Below, piece by piece: positions 18,702 through 26,442 of a stretch of 64,000 nucleotides of DNA. The DNA lies in contig JAUXTT010000024.1 in the NCBI GenBank assembly GCA_030684395.1, positions 124,001 through 188,000 of the forward strand. Direction: 5' to 3'. How positions within the stretch are numbered: position 1 is the first letter of the stretch; every line of letters begins with the position of its first letter. The stretch is from Bacteroidota bacterium. Lineage in GTDB: Bacteria > Bacteroidota > Bacteroidia > B-17B0 > Aurantibacillaceae. The translations under genes and the position numbers were made by a program. Below the pieces are notes generated by a model, which was given only the letters and a program-made list of their open reading frames with translations, was not told the DNA's origin and searched no databases.

Positions 18702-19286
18702 ATGTTTCATTACTACGGTATCTTCAAGCCTTACAAAATGCTTTCTCAGTTCGTTCCCATAAAAAAGAAGCGAACACTCAGCAATTTAGAATACGCTTTC
18801 CCGGATGGAACACACGCATTAGGCCGACTGGATGATAATACGGAAGGCTTGTTGTTACTTACTACCGATAAATCAGTCACGAAATTACTCATGCATCCCT
18901 CACAAAAACACAAGCGTGTTTATTGGGTGCAGGTACATGGGACAGTTAGTGGTGATACATTGGAAATGCTGCAAAAAGGAGTTATTATTCGATTGGAACA
19001 TAAGGATTATATTACTCTTCCCTGTGAAGCACGTTTTCTCGCCCCACCTGAAAACCTTCCTCCCCGTGCGCACCCTGTGAGTCCTCAGCTTGCAACAACC
19101 TGGCTAGAACTCACTTTGTATGAAGGCAAATTCCACCAGATTCGAAAAATGTGCGCTGCCATTGGCCATCAAACCCTGCGGCTTTTACGAATTTCTATGG
19201 AAGACCTTGAACTTCACGATTTTGTCCCAGGATCTGTTAAGGAGTATTCGAAAGAAGAGTTTTTTGAAAAACTGAAATTGGATTAA
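18702..19286 (+). CDS. Pseudouridine synthase, RsuA/RluE family
   Basis: This enzyme isomerises a uridine in rRNA to pseudouridine. The 194-residue protein lacks the N-terminal S4 domain and matches the short RluE-like form. Motif II HALGRLDDNTEGLLLLTTD contains the catalytic Asp (GRLD). Motif I is the FKPYKMLSQF start, and LTLYEGKFHQIRKMCAAIGH is the conserved GxxHQIRRM region, with L(R)LLRISMEDLEL near the end. The substrate position (for RluE, U2457 of 23S rRNA) is inferred from the family. Its mRNA is predicted to be leaderless. The stop codon coincides with the first base of the first palindrome of the ATPase cassette, which may serve as its terminator. Confidence 0.9.
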   Translation: MFHYYGIFKPYKMLSQFVPIKKKRTLSNLEYAFPDGTHALGRLDDNTEGLLLLTTDKSVTKLLMHPSQKHKRVYWVQVHGTVSGDTLEMLQKGVIIRLEHKDYITLPCEARFLAPPENLPPRAHPVSPQLATTWLELTLYEGKFHQIRKMCAAIGHQTLRLLRISMEDLELHDFVPGSVKEYSKEEFFEKLKLD

Positions 19287-19324
19287 CCTTGAAATATTCA
19301 AATGTGATTTGAATATTTCAAGGT
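19286..19324. repeat. 39-nt palindrome, left end of the AAA_14/DUF4143 cassette
   Basis: Two perfect 18-nt arms, ACCTTGAAATATTCAAAT (19286-19303) and its reverse complement (19307-19324), flank a GTG loop. The partner palindrome at 20522-20560 has the same length, the same loop size and arms that differ at two positions, each compensated on the other arm. Confidence 0.9.
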
Positions 19325-19331
19325 AAGTACT

Positions 19332-19339
19332 TATATTTG
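19332..19339 (+). promoter_or_regulatory. -7 box of the AAA_14/DUF4143 ATPase gene (leaderless geometry)
   Basis: TATATTTG lies 7 nt after the left palindrome and ends 4 nt before the ATG at 19344. The palindrome falls across the -33 to -12 region, so it could act as an operator. The predicted mRNA is leaderless. Confidence 0.6.
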
Positions 19340-19343
19340 CAGT

Positions 19344-20513
19344 ATGATAAACCGCAATATAAGATTACTGATTTCTTCTTACATCAAGGAGTTTCCTGTT
19401 ATTGCCATATTGGGGCCAAGGCAGGTTGGAAAAACAACACTTGTCAAAACCATTTCACAATCTCTCAAGAAAAAAACACATTACCTGGATCTGGAAAAGA
19501 CCAGCGACTACGAAAAATTAAACAGAGACCCGGAAGAATACCTAAGTACATACAAAGACGAGTGTGTTTTAATTGATGAAGTACAGCGAATGCCTGCTTT
19601 GTTTCCGCTACTTAGAGCTTTAGTAGATGAAAAACGAAAGCCTGCTCGATTTATCATTACCGGCTCTGCCGCACCCGAACTATTAAAAGACGCTTCTGAA
19701 AGCCTTGCAGGAAGAGTGTACTATTTTAATCTTACCCCAATTGGCTTACATGAATTACCCTCTAACATAAGTTTAAAAAAGCACTGGTTCAGAGGTGGTT
19801 TTCCAAAACCTTTGACTTTAAAAACAAATGAACTTGTTTCAGCCTGGCTGGACGCTTTTATTACTACTTATATTGAACGTGATCTTCCATTCTTATTCGA
19901 TGTAAAATTTTCGCCTATCGTAATGCGCAAACTATGGGGTATGCTTGCCCACACACATGGGAATTTATTAAATGCAGAACAATTAGGTTCTTCACTTGGA
20001 GTTACAGGTACAACGGTTAAAAGATATCTCGATTACCTGGAAGGTGCTTTTCTTATCAAAAGGCTTCCTCCCTACTTCGTAAATATTGGAAAACGCTTGG
20101 TAAAATCACCAAAAGTCTATATTAATGATAGCGGCATACTTCATCATTTGTTAAGGATCGAAAATGAACAGGAACTGATGAGTCATCCTTCAGTTGGCCC
20201 ATCATGGGAAGGATATGTAATCAGCCAGGTGATATATGCCGCCCCTCGCAGGATAGATAGTTATTTTTACAGAACACAGGTAGGTGCAGAGTGTGACCTG
20301 GTATTGGTTCACGGGAATTCGGTAAAGGCGTGTATTGAAATAAAACTCAGTAAATCACCCGTGGCTACAAAAGGTTTTTATAATACAATTGCTGATTTAA
20401 AGAGTAAAAATAACTTTATTATATGTTCTGCAGATGTTGATTACAAAACAGCAGAAAATATTATTATTGTCAGTTTACCCATCTTTATTTCAAAATACCT
20501 TCCAACTTTATAA
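19344..20513 (+). CDS. AAA_14/DUF4143 family ATPase, palindrome-flanked
   Basis: The 389-residue protein has an N-terminal AAA ATPase domain with Walker A GPRQVGKTTLVK at about residues 26-37, Walker B CVLIDEVQRMP at about 74-84 and a sensor segment ARFIITGSAAPELL. The middle (about 160-260) contains a winged-helix-like segment (NAEQLGSSLGVTGTTVKRYLDYLEGAFLIKRL). The C-terminal DUF4143 region (about 290-370) carries a PD-(D/E)XK-like pattern: AECDLVLVHG then KACIEIKLSKSP. These proteins are common in Bacteroidota and archaea and have no settled function; nuclease activity of the C-terminal part is inferred from the D-x-V, E-I-K pattern. It is alone between two palindromes. Confidence 0.88.
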   Translation: MINRNIRLLISSYIKEFPVIAILGPRQVGKTTLVKTISQSLKKKTHYLDLEKTSDYEKLNRDPEEYLSTYKDECVLIDEVQRMPALFPLLRALVDEKRKPARFIITGSAAPELLKDASESLAGRVYYFNLTPIGLHELPSNISLKKHWFRGGFPKPLTLKTNELVSAWLDAFITTYIERDLPFLFDVKFSPIVMRKLWGMLAHTHGNLLNAEQLGSSLGVTGTTVKRYLDYLEGAFLIKRLPPYFVNIGKRLVKSPKVYINDSGILHHLLRIENEQELMSHPSVGPSWEGYVISQVIYAAPRRIDSYFYRTQVGAECDLVLVHGNSVKACIEIKLSKSPVATKGFYNTIADLKSKNNFIICSADVDYKTAENIIIVSLPIFISKYLPTL

Positions 20514-20521
20514 ATTAAACT

Positions 20522-20560
20522 ACCTTGTAAAATTCAAATAAAATTTGAATTTTACAAGGT
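20522..20560. repeat. 39-nt palindrome, right end of the AAA_14/DUF4143 cassette
   Basis: Two perfect 18-nt arms, ACCTTGTAAAATTCAAAT (20522-20539) and its reverse complement (20543-20560), flank an AAA loop. It begins 8 nt after the ATPase stop codon. It could also act as a terminator, but no long T-run follows. Confidence 0.9.
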
Positions 20561-20833: not shown

Positions 20834-22078
20834 ATGGGCTTACAGGTAAATGTAAAAGAATTATTAACTCAGTTGTATTACAATCGTAATGTGATCGAAT
20901 ACCTTTTTGGTAATCGTGATAGCATTACGGTAACGGAACTGATGAATAGAGAAGATATTACTCAGGAGCAATATCAGAAGCTGATCAGCTACGAAGTATT
21001 GTATGAGTATCAGAATATCGTAAGTGTGAATGATGCTGTGATAGCTATGTTCGAAGATTTTATGGAGATCGGTGAAGTAACACCGGGTTTCATTAATGAT
21101 TATCTGAATGAACTGAATCGTCACATCAAATATTATTCGGAAGGAAAAGAAAATCGTTTCTTACGTTCAATCAAAAAATATTTGAAACGTATCAATACTG
21201 CTATCACACGTGAGATCATTAAGCTCCAGAAAAATGTAGATGATACTTACAAGAACGAAAGTAATTACCGTATCAAATTACAAAAACTGGATGATTATCG
21301 TGGAAAGCGTGATACCATCATTCAATTCATCAAAAAAACGGAAGACACGATTGAAGAAACACGTTTGTTGTTCAATATCACAAACGATCTTGAATTGTAT
21401 TCCATTGTTTCTTCGTTAAAAGCAGGATTGATAGAGAATTTAGATTTCTTAATTGAGATCCAAACAGACATTACCGATTACATCAACAAGATCCAGTTCC
21501 AATTAGATGTTTACAAAAAAGTACAACAACTGAAGGAAGTGAAAGATCGCGGAGAATTGCATTACCGTACCAATTTCAGGGAAGTGATTAAGGGTATAAA
21601 TCCAATTGGTTTCAACGGACACAAAACGCCACGTACAAAAATTCCGATCGAATTCCTTTATACGGATGACGGATATATGTTGTGCGGACGTGTAGCTGAA
21701 AAATACAAACTTACCCGATTGATGGCTCGCCGTATGGCAGATAAAATGGCCGGTAATTTTAAGGATGTGCAAATTGAGAATTCACTGCGATTAGATGTTT
21801 CCGCTTTGGTAGATAAATTCCTTGCACAACAAAAACATAATTTATTCGAATTCCTTGTTGCATACAAATTCCCTAAAGCAGTTGGCTCCATTACTTTTGA
21901 AGAACGAATTACTTTGTTCGTAGAAATCGTATTGGAATACGAAAAGAATTTTGAGTTCAAGTATCGTTTAGGATACCACGATTACCTGGTAAACGAAGTA
22001 AAAAAACGATTGGGTTATACCATCATTTTACCCAAGGCAAACGTTAAAAAGAAAGAAAGTAAAAAGGCGACAGCTTAA
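20834..22078 (+). CDS. MksF/JetA-like kleisin subunit of an SMC complex
   Basis: The 414-residue protein is the first gene of a three-gene run with the order kleisin, KITE, SMC that is typical of MksBEF and Wadjet JetABC. It starts with a helical N-terminal domain (VNVKELLTQLYYNRNVIEYLFG), has long charged helices in the middle (about 100-250) as in MukF/MksF, and ends in a compact domain (FLVAYKFPKAVGSITFEERITLFVE) likely to contact the SMC head. The last residues are lysine-rich. The assignment rests on gene order, size and helical texture rather than a signature motif. Arginine is mostly encoded by CGT, unlike neighbouring genes. It would bridge the two SMC heads. Confidence 0.65.
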   Translation: MGLQVNVKELLTQLYYNRNVIEYLFGNRDSITVTELMNREDITQEQYQKLISYEVLYEYQNIVSVNDAVIAMFEDFMEIGEVTPGFINDYLNELNRHIKYYSEGKENRFLRSIKKYLKRINTAITREIIKLQKNVDDTYKNESNYRIKLQKLDDYRGKRDTIIQFIKKTEDTIEETRLLFNITNDLELYSIVSSLKAGLIENLDFLIEIQTDITDYINKIQFQLDVYKKVQQLKEVKDRGELHYRTNFREVIKGINPIGFNGHKTPRTKIPIEFLYTDDGYMLCGRVAEKYKLTRLMARRMADKMAGNFKDVQIENSLRLDVSALVDKFLAQQKHNLFEFLVAYKFPKAVGSITFEERITLFVEIVLEYEKNFEFKYRLGYHDYLVNEVKKRLGYTIILPKANVKKKESKKATA

Positions 22079-22091
22079 CACATAGAAGAAA

Positions 22092-22730
22092 ATGGAAAAC
22101 AACGAAAATAATTACAACGAGTCGAGTACAAACGTTAAGCTACCAAAGCAAACCCACGACATATTTGCTATAATGGCGCGTGGACATTTTATTTCCAGTA
22201 ACGGAAGTAAAGACGGGATGAACAGATTGTATGACGTGATCAACAATCCTGACAACTTCGATAAACTTCAGGCTTACTTCAACGTTATTAAATACAATAT
22301 CGAAAGAGGAAATAATTTTTTCTACTTCGCTAAAATTGATGAAGCAAACAGTTTGATCGAGAAAAAATTAGAAACATTTGAAAAGTATATCGACATCATC
22401 GATCTTTTCGCATCAATGGATAATAAGATTACTATCGGTTCACGTTTCCGTCCGAGTGAAATTGCGGAAGAGTGTAACGCAAATGTGCGTTTGAAACAAA
22501 AACTTCAGAAAATTCCACTATACCGTTCAGAAACATTGAGCAACAAGGTGCGTGAGATCTGCGACTTAATGACACGTGATTCTTTTTTAGAACGTGAAGA
22601 CGAACAAAGTGAAACATACAAAGTACTGGATTCTTATTCTTACTTAATGGACATTGTTAACTCGATAGCCATTTACGAAGATCCGGGAACAGGCGGAACC
22701 GAACCTGCAGGCGGAATCATTTACAACTAA
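22092..22730 (+). CDS. MksE/JetB-like KITE subunit
   Basis: The 212-residue protein follows the kleisin gene after 13 nt. It begins with an unstructured Asn-rich stretch, then DIFAIMARGHFISSNG, a start I associate with MksE-family proteins, followed by winged-helix-like helices (YDVINNPDNFDKLQAYFNVI, FFYFAKIDEANSLIEKKLET, IDLFASMDNKITIGSRFRPSEIA). MksE dimers bind the kleisin and regulate SMC head closure. Its place between the kleisin and SMC genes fits. The end is Gly-rich and possibly flexible. The CGT-rich codon use is shared with its two operon partners. Confidence 0.7.
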   Translation: MENNENNYNESSTNVKLPKQTHDIFAIMARGHFISSNGSKDGMNRLYDVINNPDNFDKLQAYFNVIKYNIERGNNFFYFAKIDEANSLIEKKLETFEKYIDIIDLFASMDNKITIGSRFRPSEIAEECNANVRLKQKLQKIPLYRSETLSNKVREICDLMTRDSFLEREDEQSETYKVLDSYSYLMDIVNSIAIYEDPGTGGTEPAGGIIYN

Positions 22731-22758
22731 TTTTTAGCAACGAATTTATACATAATAC

Positions 22759-25700
22759 ATGGAACATAGAATATTAAACCGAATCGTAATGATCAACATC
22801 GCGTCTAACAAATACGCTGATGTGGAAATGAGTGGAAACACTTGTTTTGTGGGGACGAACAACTTCGGTAAAACTTCTTTACAGCGTGCAATCCTTTTCT
22901 TCTACAGTGCAAACAGCCGTGGATTGGGGATCTCAGCATCTCAAAAACCTTTTGAGGAACATTACTTCCGTTACGAAAATTCATTTTTAGTATATGAGGT
23001 TGCAACAGAAGAAAAGAACTTCTTTGTCATTATCTATCGTCACCACAAACTGAATTTCCGTTTTGTGGATTCCCCATACAATCCTGATTATTTCTTCACT
23101 GAAAATGATGAAGCGATGAAGATCGGTGATGTATTGAAAAAGTTAGATAAATACGGCGTGTATTACAGTAACCAGATCGATACTTTCGAGCGTTACCGTA
23201 ATATCCTTTATGGAACAGAGACTGATAAAATGTTGAGCAAGTTCCACATCTTACGTGGTAACGAAAAATATCAGAACATTCCGAAGTCGATTACGAATGT
23301 ATTCTTGTCTTCTAAATCTTCTATTGATTCACGTTTCATCAAAGACTTTATTGCGAACTCGCTTTCTTCGGAAAACACAAGCATTAAGTTAGAGCAGGTA
23401 GAACGTCAGCTTCGTCAGTTCAACGAGAAGTACACTGATATCGAAACTTATCTGAAAAAAGAAACTCAACAACTAATTGAGTTGATGGATAAGAAATTTG
23501 ATCAGGTAAAAATGCTAAAAGGTTCTCAGTTAGAAATGGCTGACAAGCTTGGTAGCAGCTTGAAGTACGCGGAAGTGCAAAACGAAGCTATTCGTGATGC
23601 ATCTAAACAAAAAGAAGAAGAATTAGATCTGTTACAAGCTGAACACAATTCAACAAAAGAAGGAATTGAAGGTAAACAACAGGATATCCGTGAAGAGATC
23701 GGTTATTATGATCGTACTATTCGTGACTCAAACAAAAAATTAAAAGAGTACCAATCTCAGAATATTGAAGAAGCGGTTGAGAAACATAAACAACGCGAAC
23801 AGTTACAGGTTGAGTTAAACATGGCTCGTAAAGAGTATGAAACTCTTACCAGTAACGTATCGAGCATCGAATTAAAATACTCTACTTTATTAGAGCAGTT
23901 AAAAAATGAGCGCGGTTCTTTTATAAATGGTGTTAACTCTAAAACAAGTACGATCTTTAATGATTATAACGAACGTCAGTTATTAGCTAAGAACGAACTC
24001 AACAAAAAAGAGAACGAGTTAAAACAAAAACGTGAAGATTCATTAGGTGATATCGGAGCAGAGATCACTTCTAAGCAAATTGAGTTCAACGAATTAAAAT
24101 CGGAAGAAAAAGTAATTCGTAACACTCGTTTCTATGAGACCGAGATCAAAGCATTGGAAACAGAGCTTGCTGAACTAAGAGCGGTTACTTATAAGAACCG
24201 TTCGGAGAAAGCGATCAAGAGTAATATGATCCAAACCATTCAAAAAGACTGGGAAGGAACAGAAGCGAAGATCAAAGGTTCATTAGCTAATCAGGTTACG
24301 AAAGTTAATAATGAGATCATCAAGAAAAGAGCGGAGATCAAAGAGATCGAAAGCAAGCTGGATGTTCAGGACGGCGCATTGTACGGTTTCTTAGAAGGAA
24401 ACATTAAAGACTGGCACAATACAATTGGTAAGGTTTGTAACGAGGATATTTTATTCCGTACCGATCTTGAGCCGGAAATGCAAAAGGAAATTGCTAACTC
24501 ATTATATGGTGTAAGTTTAAAATTAGACACTGTAAATATTGTTTCTAAATCTTTGGAAGAATACCAGGGAGTGAAAAATGAATTGCTTGCACAAATTCGT
24601 GAGCTGGAAGATTCATTAAATTCATTTCAGGTAAGCAATAACGAAGAGAAGATGTTGGCTGCCGACCGCTTTGGTAAGCAATTAGGCGAGTTAAAAGAAG
24701 ATGTGAAGGTTCTTACCTACTCTTTGGAACTTGCTGAGAAACGTGAGAAAAAATTAATGCTGGAGCTTGACGACTGGAAACAGAAAGCAAGCGAAGAAGT
24801 AGAAACTTCCTTATCAGGCAACAGAAGTAAATTTAATTTGGTTGAAGAAGAATTAGCCATATTAAATAAGAAGAAAAATAATATGCTGAATGATTTCAAT
24901 TTGCAGTTCGAGCAATTGAGAGCGTATCATTTAGATCGTATTGCTGATTTGAAAGAACGCCAGGAAGCGGAGATCAAAGACATTGAAACGGAAAAAGACA
25001 AAACCGTTGCAGCCTTTGATGCGAAAGAAAAAGAAATGAACGACGAAAAAGAAACGATGTTCAAATCGAAAGGTGTAGATAACAAACAAGTAAAAGACGT
25101 TGACAAAAAGATCAAAGAACTTCAGGAAGCTATTAAGCAGATTGAGCAGTATTCACAAATTGTAAACGATTACTTAAAAGATAAACGTGAGTTATTTGAT
25201 AAACTTCCTGATTTTATTCAGAAGAAAGAGGAATTCATGAAAACCTCTCAGGACCTGAATAATCAATTGGAAGAAGCTGCTCGTAAGTTCAACTTAAAGA
25301 ACATGGAGTTGCGTAAACAAAAACGTGGCTTTGATGAAGAATTGATCGAGTTCAATAACGGTATCAATTACTTCACAAAAAATTTCCGCGAAACTCCGGT
25401 TTACAATAAATACGAAGATGTAATTGAGCGCGCTGAGCCAAAGAAAACTACTTATTCAGTAATGGATCTTTGTACCCAGTTATTAAAGAACGATTCGCAT
25501 TTTAACGAAGAGTACGGTGCATTCCAGCGTTATGTAAACGAGTTCTCAGGTAAGTTCCGCTTGGATAATCACTTTAACTTTGTGATCCGTAACGATGCTT
25601 CACAGGCAGAATATGAGCGCTTTGCACAAAACGTTTCTAATTTCATTCACGAAAATAAAATTGAATTATCGATTGCTGAAACCGCAACTCAAATTGGTTT

Positions 25701-26442
25701 GGTAACAGACAGTATTGCAAGTAAAGTAAAAGAACTAAGTGGACAACAGGAGAAGATCCAGCATATTATTACTTTAATCGCAGACGATTTCAAGAAAGCG
25801 GAGTTTGAAGAAAGTAAATTGATCGAGTTCATCAAGATCAAATTAGAAGAATCAGACAACAAGGTGTACAAGATGTTGAAGAAGATCGAAGAATTCAAAG
25901 ATGAGCACGGTGTGTTCTACGGAGAAGGATTGTTCAACACTGATTACGCAACAGGTGGTAAAAACAAAGAGATCAACAACCGTGCGGTTAAGTTATTGGA
26001 AAACCTTCGTTCAGCTATTAAAGAACAAGAGCAGGAAGAAATTCGTTTGCAAGACTTATTTGAATTAAAGTTCAACATCAAAGAAGGTATGAACGAAACC
26101 GGCTGGACACACAAGATAGACAGTATCGGAAGTACCGGAACAGATATCCTTGTAAAAGCGATCATCTACATTACGTTGCTTCACGTATTCATCAAAGAAT
26201 CTTCACACAGAAGTTCAAAAGCATTTAAGGTGCATTGTATCATCGACGAGGTTGGACAGATCTCTGCACATTACTTAAAAGAGTTATTGAAATTCGCGAA
26301 GAACAGAAATATTATGATGATCAACGGTTTGCCAAACAAGAGCGGATTGGAAAGTCATTACAAATACACTTATCAGTTCAGAAGAGAAGAAGACGGAAAC
26401 GTACGTATCTTCCCAAGTATTGTAACTGAGGTGGAAGCTTAA
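22759..26442 (+). CDS. MksB/JetC-like SMC ATPase
   Basis: The 1227-residue protein has SMC architecture. The N-terminal head has Walker A GTNNFGKTSLQRA at residues 32-44. Long coiled coils occupy about 220-550 and 640-900, with a hinge-like, less charged region near 550-620 (KDWHNTIGKVCNEDILFRTDLEP). The C-terminal head has the signature motif SIGSTGTDILVKA near residue 1124 and Walker B VHCIIDEVGQI near 1158. The STGTD form resembles MukB/MksB rather than canonical SMC (LSGG). It would load on DNA and extrude loops. No JetD/MksG-like nuclease gene follows: the next gene encodes a small membrane protein. So a chromosome-maintenance role is at least as likely as plasmid defence. Confidence 0.85.
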   Translation: MEHRILNRIVMINIASNKYADVEMSGNTCFVGTNNFGKTSLQRAILFFYSANSRGLGISASQKPFEEHYFRYENSFLVYEVATEEKNFFVIIYRHHKLNFRFVDSPYNPDYFFTENDEAMKIGDVLKKLDKYGVYYSNQIDTFERYRNILYGTETDKMLSKFHILRGNEKYQNIPKSITNVFLSSKSSIDSRFIKDFIANSLSSENTSIKLEQVERQLRQFNEKYTDIETYLKKETQQLIELMDKKFDQVKMLKGSQLEMADKLGSSLKYAEVQNEAIRDASKQKEEELDLLQAEHNSTKEGIEGKQQDIREEIGYYDRTIRDSNKKLKEYQSQNIEEAVEKHKQREQLQVELNMARKEYETLTSNVSSIELKYSTLLEQLKNERGSFINGVNSKTSTIFNDYNERQLLAKNELNKKENELKQKREDSLGDIGAEITSKQIEFNELKSEEKVIRNTRFYETEIKALETELAELRAVTYKNRSEKAIKSNMIQTIQKDWEGTEAKIKGSLANQVTKVNNEIIKKRAEIKEIESKLDVQDGALYGFLEGNIKDWHNTIGKVCNEDILFRTDLEPEMQKEIANSLYGVSLKLDTVNIVSKSLEEYQGVKNELLAQIRELEDSLNSFQVSNNEEKMLAADRFGKQLGELKEDVKVLTYSLELAEKREKKLMLELDDWKQKASEEVETSLSGNRSKFNLVEEELAILNKKKNNMLNDFNLQFEQLRAYHLDRIADLKERQEAEIKDIETEKDKTVAAFDAKEKEMNDEKETMFKSKGVDNKQVKDVDKKIKELQEAIKQIEQYSQIVNDYLKDKRELFDKLPDFIQKKEEFMKTSQDLNNQLEEAARKFNLKNMELRKQKRGFDEELIEFNNGINYFTKNFRETPVYNKYEDVIERAEPKKTTYSVMDLCTQLLKNDSHFNEEYGAFQRYVNEFSGKFRLDNHFNFVIRNDASQAEYERFAQNVSNFIHENKIELSIAETATQIGLVTDSIASKVKELSGQQEKIQHIITLIADDFKKAEFEESKLIEFIKIKLEESDNKVYKMLKKIEEFKDEHGVFYGEGLFNTDYATGGKNKEINNRAVKLLENLRSAIKEQEQEEIRLQDLFELKFNIKEGMNETGWTHKIDSIGSTGTDILVKAIIYITLLHVFIKESSHRSSKAFKVHCIIDEVGQISAHYLKELLKFAKNRNIMMINGLPNKSGLESHYKYTYQFRREEDGNVRIFPSIVTEVEA

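What the first reader, a model, noticed from the sequence alone, without database searches (positions are those of the whole stretch)
19286..20560. AAA_14/DUF4143 ATPase cassette bounded by two covarying palindromes
Seen: the ATPase gene lies between two 39-nt perfect palindromes, each with 18-bp arms and a 3-nt loop. The left arms differ at two positions (7 and 10), and both changes are matched on the opposite arm, so base pairing is conserved while sequence drifts. The gene has its own promoter inside the left flank. Inference: the palindromes are ends of a mobile or selfish unit, or paired binding sites of the ATPase. AAA_14/DUF4143 proteins have no settled role. This is the best candidate here for an undescribed system.
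Basis: partly seen in the sequence, partly recalled or inferred. Interest (0 to 1): 0.78.

Follow-up and report, generated by a model that had tools for sequence, protein, structure and literature searches.

The report
Self-recognition palindromes of an ATPase-nuclease gene
A very common bacterial gene of unknown role, an ATP-driven putative nuclease, carries beside it its own palindromic DNA sites, and one amino acid next to its catalytic centre predicts one base of those sites across many species, so each gene seems to recognise its own sites and to avoid those of its relatives.

Summary
It is not peculiar to this locus. Of 34 close homologues, 31 have such a palindrome before the ATG, mostly at a fixed distance over the promoter, and 20 a second one after the stop; in others the second site lies in tandem upstream. 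The palindromes are best read as duplex binding sites of the encoded protein, not as hairpins, terminators or obligatory transposon ends. Residue 313, three residues before the PD-(D/E)XK motif, predicts palindrome base 4: Ala/Val/Ser/Thr-T, Asn/Gln-A, Asp-C, His-G. This held in 74 of 74 non-Gly genes with a confident site, with at least 16 switches on the tree. In 43 of 44 multi-site genes all sites share base 4. Paralogues in one genome share it less often than chance. The family is PADLOC's untested defence candidate PDC-S01. 'Paired binding sites' is supported; 'ends of a mobile unit' is weakened, though nine empty alleles lack gene and palindromes together. What the nuclease does at, or away from, its sites is open but now directly testable.

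The parts
19286..19324 (.). left palindromic site (arm 18, loop 3); base 4 = T at 19289, mirror 19321
   Evidence: homologous site starting 57-62 nt before ATG in 25 of the 31 close homologues that have one
19308..19311 (+). TTTG, candidate -33 promoter element inside the palindrome's inner arm
   Evidence: sequence; consensus recalled
19332..19339 (+). TATATTTG, candidate -7 box (TAnnTTTG), ends 4 nt before ATG
   Evidence: in 32 of 47 homologues with the same site spacing, control 30 of 2350 windows
19344..20513 (+). AAA_14/DUF4143 protein, 389 aa (PADLOC PDC-S01)
   Evidence: model pLDDT 93.5
19413..19439 (+). Walker A, GPRQVGKTT (residues 24-32)
   Evidence: G24, R26, G29, K30 invariant in 59 sequences
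19575..19580 (+). Walker B D78 E79
   Evidence: invariant in 59
20010..20012 (+). residue 223 in the HTH-like helix; best-scoring partner of palindrome base 14
   Evidence: score 0.46, next 0.21; HTH_11 match 200-235 below its cut-off
20208..20210 (+). E289, first acidic residue of the PD-(D/E)XK-like set
   Evidence: invariant in 59; motif assignment recalled
20277..20282 (+). Q312-V313: residue 313 predicts palindrome base 4, residue 312 is top partner of base 7
20289..20297 (+). E316-x-D318 of the nuclease motif
   Evidence: invariant in 59
20337..20345 (+). E332-x-K334 of the nuclease motif
   Evidence: invariant in 59
20522..20560 (.). right palindromic site, same orientation as the left
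   Evidence: same base 4 as the left in all 31 gene pairs compared

Best explanation
The two palindromes are cognate duplex DNA sites of the protein encoded between them. A symmetric dimer (or larger ring) of the ATPase-nuclease binds each palindrome: the nuclease domain, through residues 312-313 beside its catalytic motif, reads bases 7 and 4 of each arm, and the winged-helix part, around residue 223, reads base 14. Because both arms are read by the same residues, a switch of specificity must change both arms and every site of that gene, which is why the sites look like covarying palindromes. The left site lies over the -33 region at a fixed distance from ATG, so binding there most likely represses the gene (inferred). 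The second site, after the stop or in tandem upstream, most likely lets two bound dimers cooperate or loop to keep a dangerous ATPase-nuclease scarce and idle until a trigger releases it (inferred). Coexisting paralogues keep different codes so as not to seize each other's sites (inferred from their codes). Shown here: site-gene association, residue-base code, identity of read bases among the sites of a gene, fewer shared codes among paralogues than chance. Inferred: dimer, repression, trigger, cleavage.
For: Left site in 31 of 34 close homologues (12 or more of 18 pairs), right site in 20 of 34, null 3.2% of 1020 windows. 34 aligned sites: 95.9% of cells paired, slid controls 31-57%; base 4 takes four pair types 9/9/8/8. 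Base 4 against residue 313: 1.99 bits in 17 genes, highest-ranked column. Code fixed, then tested on newly fetched genes: 38 of 38 confident of 57 examined (3 were re-fetches of training genes), 14 of 15 confident of 26 examined (the miss is a Gly). 74 of 74 non-Gly confident rows concordant, at least 16 switches on the tree, 17 on a tree without residues 311-314. APC score 1.25 for base 4/residue 313, next 0.23; base 7/residue 312 0.59, next 0.37; base 14/residue 223 0.46, next 0.21. Left against right in 31 genes: 0 of 62 differences at bases 4, 5 and 6, but 15-26% at 1-3, 10-13 and 17. All sites of a gene share base 4 in 43 of 44 multi-site genes. Paralogues: 3 of 36 same-genome pairs share base 4, shuffled mean 10.3, P 0.001; 0 of 36 share bases 4, 5 and 7, mean 3.0, P 0.034. 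TAnnTTTG ending 4-5 nt before ATG in 32 of 47.
Against: No binding, repression or cleavage was measured. The code test used only genes with a confident palindrome. Of the 19 not confident, 17 had a table entry: 9 agree, 8 do not (5 of the 8 Gly; L209 looks one base out of register, L221 and L225 have no clear site). Of the 11 not confident, 8 had an entry: 5 agree, 3 do not (2 Gly, and L281, whose two arms disagree). Gly is degenerate and its table entry failed. 37 of 119 homologues have no site in the strict scan; some have weaker palindromes, others, many of them Gly-313 genes, none that this profile finds. L214 has a perfect downstream palindrome of another code. In the window residue 312 is Gln, which goes with T at base 7: the right site has T, the left A. 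Pairs independent on well-supported branches all agree or do not differ, but each test is too small for significance. Same-genome pairs come from 16 genomes, some of one order with similar repertoires. The C-terminal domain alone gave no Foldseek match below E 0.001.
Confidence: 0.72

Rival explanations
1. The palindromes are the ends of an IS-like mobile unit and the ATPase-nuclease is its transposase: it cuts at the sites and moves the gene.
For: Compact unit, promoter at the left end and stop codon at or in the right end. Empty alleles without palindromes: sister species at the window locus and 8 of 8 examined at the L017 locus. Homology of distant copies ends within a few nt of the palindromes, e.g. 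L001/L073 and L125/L251. Homology ends at one palindrome edge, the other flank being shared, in L128 and L243. Invariant nuclease residues.
Against: The second site can be upstream instead of downstream (11 of 119 with two up and none down; 35 of 119 with one up only). The two sites lie in direct, not inverted, orientation. No near-identical copy in the own genome (next copy 50%); other genomes were not checked for this systematically. No consistent target duplication by eye. No stray copy of the window's palindrome in its genome.
Confidence: 0.15
2. A selfish incompatibility or addiction unit: the nuclease cuts its own kind of site when the site is not properly occupied or is carried by a competitor, so it keeps itself and excludes kin of the same code.
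For: Base reading sits three residues from the catalytic motif; catalytic residues invariant in 59; codes diversify and coexisting paralogues differ; found on plasmids, 486 of 72,556 records.
Against: No cleavage shown; no antitoxin or methylase partner was looked for; the same orthogonality is expected of plain operators.
Confidence: 0.2
3. Stem-loops selected as DNA cruciforms or RNA hairpins (including bidirectional terminators).
For: Near-perfect pairing; one minus-strand terminator-like call at the right palindrome; matched changes at positions 7 and 10 in the window; at bases 1-3, 12 compensated changes where about 3.5 both-arm changes are expected.
Against: Inner unread positions (10-13, 17) change on one arm only in 45 cells against 4 compensated (about 1.7 expected). 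The left site lies upstream of the -7 box, so it should not be in the gene's own mRNA. No terminator call on the + strand at either site. A residue-base code is not expected of a hairpin.
Confidence: 0.06
4. Anti-phage gene (PDC-S01) whose palindromes are plain autoregulatory operators, with no further role of the nuclease at the sites.
For: PADLOC match E 6.9e-91; reported as the fourth most common defence across prokaryotes (passages of PMC12988326); fixed promoter spacing of the left site.
Against: Validation is said to be pending for most such candidates. Does not explain why the nuclease domain, and not only the HTH, reads the site. It is the conservative form of the best explanation rather than its opposite.
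Confidence: 0.4

Closest known systems
PADLOC PDC-S01 (phage defence candidate, single gene)
   Same: the protein is a member by profile
   Different: cognate DNA sites, a recognition code or orthogonality are not mentioned in the passages seen; no held paper has both DUF4143 and 'palindrom'. The paper that named the candidates was not seen
Archaeal STAND/MNS-type AAA+ ATPases (2QEN, 2FNA; clade name recalled)
   Same: fold of residues 1-271, VIA-align Z 17.1 and 16.4 over 245 and 250 residues
   Different: those rows do not cover the C-terminal nuclease domain; their DNA sites are not compared here
PD-(D/E)XK nucleases (Type II restriction enzymes, McrC, Card1, VRR_NUC)
   Same: E289, E316-x-D318, E332-x-K334 invariant in 59; among the weak Foldseek rows are nucleases I recall as of this kind
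   Different: fused to an AAA+ ATPase and an HTH-like part, and its sites lie beside its own gene; a methylase partner was not looked for
Autoregulated operators (repressors, antitoxins, R-M controller proteins; recalled)
   Same: palindromic site over own promoter, paralogue-specific
   Different: outer bases read, by covariation, by the nuclease domain; a second site can lie 1.2 kb away past the stop codon
Insertion sequences and REP/RAYT elements (recalled)
   Same: single gene between palindromic repeats, compact
   Different: second repeat not obligatory at the far end, no known transposase domain, no dispersed copies of the window's repeat

Membership tests
AAA_14 / DUF4143 | Pfam matches above gathering score | tested here: met
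   PF13635 136.2 bits (cut-off 28.1), PF13173 104.7 bits (cut-off 27)
PDC-S01 | profile match | tested here: met
   E 6.9e-91
PDC-S01 | anti-phage activity | not testable with these tools
   no assay; validation pending for most such candidates per passages of PMC12988326
PD-(D/E)XK nuclease superfamily | acidic/lysine motif set conserved | tested here: met
   E289, E316, D318, E332, K334 invariant in 59; motif assignment recalled
PD-(D/E)XK nuclease superfamily | solved-structure fold match | tested here: inconclusive
   C-terminal model pLDDT 93.6; best Foldseek row 6ut7_G, a McrB/McrC complex, E 0.016, TM 0.39
STAND/MNS AAA+ ATPase | fold of ATPase plus following helical/winged part | tested here: met
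   2QEN Z 17.1, rmsd 2.8, 245 aligned; 2FNA Z 16.4, rmsd 3.0, 250 aligned
Insertion sequence / transposon | known transposase domain | tested here: not met
   none among the 6 Pfam families at E 0.001
Insertion sequence / transposon | repeat at both ends in all members | tested here: not met
   35 of 119 one upstream site only, 11 two upstream and none downstream
Insertion sequence / transposon | target-site duplication | tested here: inconclusive
   no consistent duplication by eye; empty sites too diverged
Intrinsic terminator | GC-rich stem followed by T-tract | tested here: inconclusive
   the scan calls the right site on the minus strand (4 G-C of 18 pairs) and neither site on the + strand
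Autoregulatory operator | site overlaps own promoter at fixed spacing | tested here: met
   41 of 61 genes (3 of the 61 are re-fetches) start at -57 to -59 from ATG; TAnnTTTG in 32 of 47
Autoregulatory operator | binding represses transcription | not testable with these tools
   needs a reporter assay

The most novel reading that the evidence does not exclude
One of the most abundant 'defence' genes of prokaryotes is in fact a self-recognising nuclease module: its nuclease domain reads, by a one-residue code, palindromic sites next to its own gene, and acts at those sites (cutting or licensing) to keep itself, exclude kin of the same code, or move. Repeated code switching and orthogonality among paralogues are the marks of that selfish or immunity logic.
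Probability: 0.25. Interest if true: 0.92.

Novelty: new variant of a known kind. Interest (0 to 1): 0.8.

Why it matters
PDC-S01 is described as the fourth most common defence system of prokaryotes, with validation pending for most such candidates (passages of PMC12988326). This work gives the family a likely DNA ligand, a residue-to-base code, and a rule that coexisting copies keep different codes. Each is a prediction that a gel shift, a footprint or one residue swap can test. If the nuclease acts at these sites, the family would need to be re-read as self-recognising modules rather than, or as well as, phage defence.

Tried and rejected
Hairpin or cruciform selection: rejected as the main cause, because inner unread positions drift one arm at a time; the symmetry of bases 1-3 remains unexplained. 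Terminators: disfavoured. Dispersed REP-like repeats: the window's palindrome occurs nowhere else in its genome under a pattern that lets four arm places and the loop vary. In the 464 kb held, a scan fixed on G6 and C34 finds 8 places, of which only the window's two score well on the profile.

Palindrome as a pre-existing target duplicated on insertion: 0 of 8 empty alleles examined at the L017 locus has it. Eleven loci were at hand there: L194 and L201 are filled, and L202 has no matching right flank and was left out. Three further genomes with the left flank (G412, G421, G020) were not examined.

First left/right similarity screen: 22 of 40 close and 13 of 78 far genes reach score 18 (null 3.2%), but some were not palindromes: L161 proved an integron-like cassette repeat and L023 a repeat without palindromic symmetry. 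It was replaced by the strict scan. In the arm comparison, 26 genes were run; L019, L129, L111 and L034 were misaligned and dropped (22 left; 15 compensated changes in 9 genes). The 34 genes leave out duplicates and the viral-contig genes L160, L161 and L163. The 31 left/right pairs leave out L002, L127, L129 and L131 (palindrome placed otherwise in the 39-base frame), L247 (weak left site), L214 (downstream site of another code, below the profile limit) and the re-fetches.

My first orientation of minus-strand loci was wrong (repeated correctly). The Gly entry of the code (from two weak cases) failed. Fold search of the C-terminal domain was weak. No library of predicted cellular structures was on hand.

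Full report
WHAT IS THERE. They lie in direct orientation to each other. The own genome holds 14 tblastn matches to the protein, two of them parts of one gene. The six closest genes (L001-L006) each have a left and a right palindrome that resemble each other but differ from those of the other genes; in L007-L014 no such pair was seen. In 464 kb of the same genome 19 palindromes score 13 or more, and by eye only those of the two DUF4143 genes in that sample match each other. Of 41 genomes (own plus 40 relatives), 21 hold a match to the protein and the nearest complete relative, G001, none.

HOW GENERAL. Among 34 homologues at 43% identity or more (duplicates and three viral-contig genes left out), 31 have a left site with at least 12 of 18 pairs, 25 of these starting 57-62 nt before ATG, and 20 have a right site; the rate in 1020 random windows is 3.2%. 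A strict profile scan over 119 homologues at 36% or more gives upstream/downstream counts of 1/0 in 35, 1/1 in 30, 2/0 in 11, 0/0 in 37, 0/1 in 3, and one each of 3/0, 1/3 and 3/2, against 0 sites in 369,507 nt of control sequence. So 82 have at least one site and 44 at least two. Tandem sites often repeat every 52-54 bp (L239, L246, L260, L261, L217, L226), about five helical turns (inference). The plasmid members read from Thermus, Dinoroseobacter, Agrobacterium and Thiothrix have at most an imperfect AT-rich palindrome touching the ATG, in Thermus a doubtful one, and none downstream. Downstream sites were likewise not found in the second sample of more distant Bacteroidota genes L262-L281.

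NOT HAIRPINS. 34 aligned sites pair in 95.9% of cells, slid controls in 31-57%. But comparing the left and right sites of 31 genes separates the positions. At bases 4, 5 and 6 there are 0 differences in 62 arm comparisons, and at most 4 at each of 7-9 and 14-16. At 1-3, 10-13 and 17 there are 15-26%. At the inner variable positions (10-13, 17) one arm changes alone in 45 cells and both change in a compensated way in 4, where about 1.7 would be expected. Symmetry is held where something reads the base, not along the whole stem. At bases 1-3, 12 compensated changes stand against about 3.5 both-arm changes expected, so the outer rim is symmetric too, and I cannot say why. The left site also lies upstream of a TAnnTTTG box that ends 4 or 5 nt before ATG in 32 of 47 genes with that spacing (30 of 2350 in control windows), so it should not be transcribed from the gene's own promoter (inference).

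WHO READS IT. Base 4 of the palindrome takes all four values in nearly equal numbers. Residue 313 is the protein column that goes with it best (17 genes), and the table is chemically sensible: Ala, Val, Ser or Thr with T; Asn or Gln with A; Asp with C; His with G (registers partly by eye). I fixed this table, with Gly to A from two weak cases, and tested it on newly fetched genes; the site finder was blind to base 4. In one search, 57 were examined, 38 had a confident site, and 38 were right; three of these (L234, L241, L244) are re-fetches of training genes, so 35 of 35 are new. In one search, 26 were examined, 15 confident, 14 right; the miss is Gly (L270), and two more Gly genes with weaker sites (L272, L276) also had T, so Gly carries no fixed code. 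L118 and L119 in that set are near duplicates. Of the genes without a confident site, 14 of the 25 with a table entry agree and 11 do not, 7 of the 11 being Gly. Leaving out Gly, 74 of 74 confident genes agree, and base 4 changed at least 16 times on the tree (17 on a tree without residues 311-314). With the average product correction the pair stands at 1.25 against 0.23 for the next residue. Base 7 pairs best with residue 312 (0.59), and base 14 with residue 223 in the HTH-like part (0.46). Residues 312-313 lie just before E316-x-D318 of the nuclease motif, which with E289, E332 and K334 is invariant in 59 sequences, as are Walker residues. Bases 4 and 14 are one helical turn apart, which fits one protein face on duplex DNA (inference).

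ALL SITES OF A GENE AGREE. In 43 of 44 genes with two or more sites every site has the same base 4; the exception is L214, whose downstream palindrome has another code. At one locus, shared by G014, G007 and G419, the first two have His/G and the third Gln/A, with its two left sites and its right site all of the A type.

ORTHOGONALITY. In 16 genomes with more than one usable gene (40 genes), 3 of 36 same-genome pairs share base 4 (shuffled mean 10.3, P 0.001), 2 share bases 4 and 5 (mean 7.5, P 0.005) and none shares bases 4, 5 and 7 (mean 3.0, P 0.034) (which mends one typed base). Some genomes belong to one order and share repertoires, so the P values flatter the case.

MOBILE OR NOT. At the window locus the sister species G001 has the two flanking genes side by side, with neither gene nor palindromes between them. 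At the L017 locus 8 of 8 empty alleles examined lack palindromes. Homology between distant copies stops within a few nt of the palindromes (L001/L073, L125/L251), and in two loci it stops at one palindrome edge while the other flank is shared (L128 right, L243 left). So the unit comes and goes as a cassette. But the second site can sit upstream, no near-identical copy was seen in the own genome, and no target duplication was found by eye, so I do not call it a transposon.

KNOWN CONTEXT. PADLOC names the family PDC-S01. Passages of PMC12988326 call it the fourth most common defence across prokaryotes, with validation pending for most such candidates, and an ATPase fused to a PD-(D/E)XK domain; passages of PMC13356809 report it as abundant in rumen genomes. 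In the held library no paper has both DUF4143 and 'palindrom', one has DUF4143, seven COG1373 and three PDC-S01, seen as listings except the two just named. The original paper that named the candidates was not seen. The model (pLDDT 93.5) best matches archaeal ATPases 2QEN and 2FNA over residues 1-271; the C-terminal model gives only weak rows, some of them nucleases.

VERDICT. Cognate duplex sites: about 0.93. Autoregulation by the left site: about 0.7. A triggered defence role: about 0.4. Action of the nuclease at its own sites: about 0.25-0.35. Transposition proper: about 0.15.

Noticed in passing
window 20834-26442 +: MksBEF-like condensin operon next to the unit (414 aa; MksE 1.1e-31; 1227 aa DUF3584); its first gene is 94% identical over the 392 residues held in the sister species, where it follows the pseudouridine synthase gene directly.
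   Followed up: partly
L017 2661-2844 (genome G014): A repeat of about 175 bp with ten further 90-92% identical copies listed in that genome lies between the gene's stop and its right palindrome.
   Followed up: no
L161 4740-6300: A DUF4143 gene lies between two similar attC-like repeats (likeness recalled), apparently an integron cassette, on a viral-collection contig.
   Followed up: partly
L116 (genome G038): A 50-aa N-terminal remnant of the gene keeps a nearly intact left palindrome, 17 of 18 pairs.
   Followed up: no
L038 (genome G032): An N-terminal gene fragment with its own palindrome stands just upstream of a full gene with a similar palindrome; the sites stay AT-rich in GC-rich surroundings.
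   Followed up: no
L124 downstream; L226 both sides: Arrays of sites: three downstream with a period of 88-89 bp (L124), three upstream and two downstream with a period of 53-54 bp (L226).
   Followed up: partly
L006, L025, L027, L039 and L029, L030, L098: More distant branches have other palindromes (centre GGAATnnnATTCC or similar, or AAATTCCGTCA...TGACGGAATTT) beside the gene; their code was not worked out.
   Followed up: no
window 19292 and 20528: Base 7 differs between the two window sites (A left, T right); residue 312 is Gln, which mostly goes with T elsewhere, while the 76%-identical L073 has His and A on both sides: possibly a switch caught half way.
   Followed up: partly
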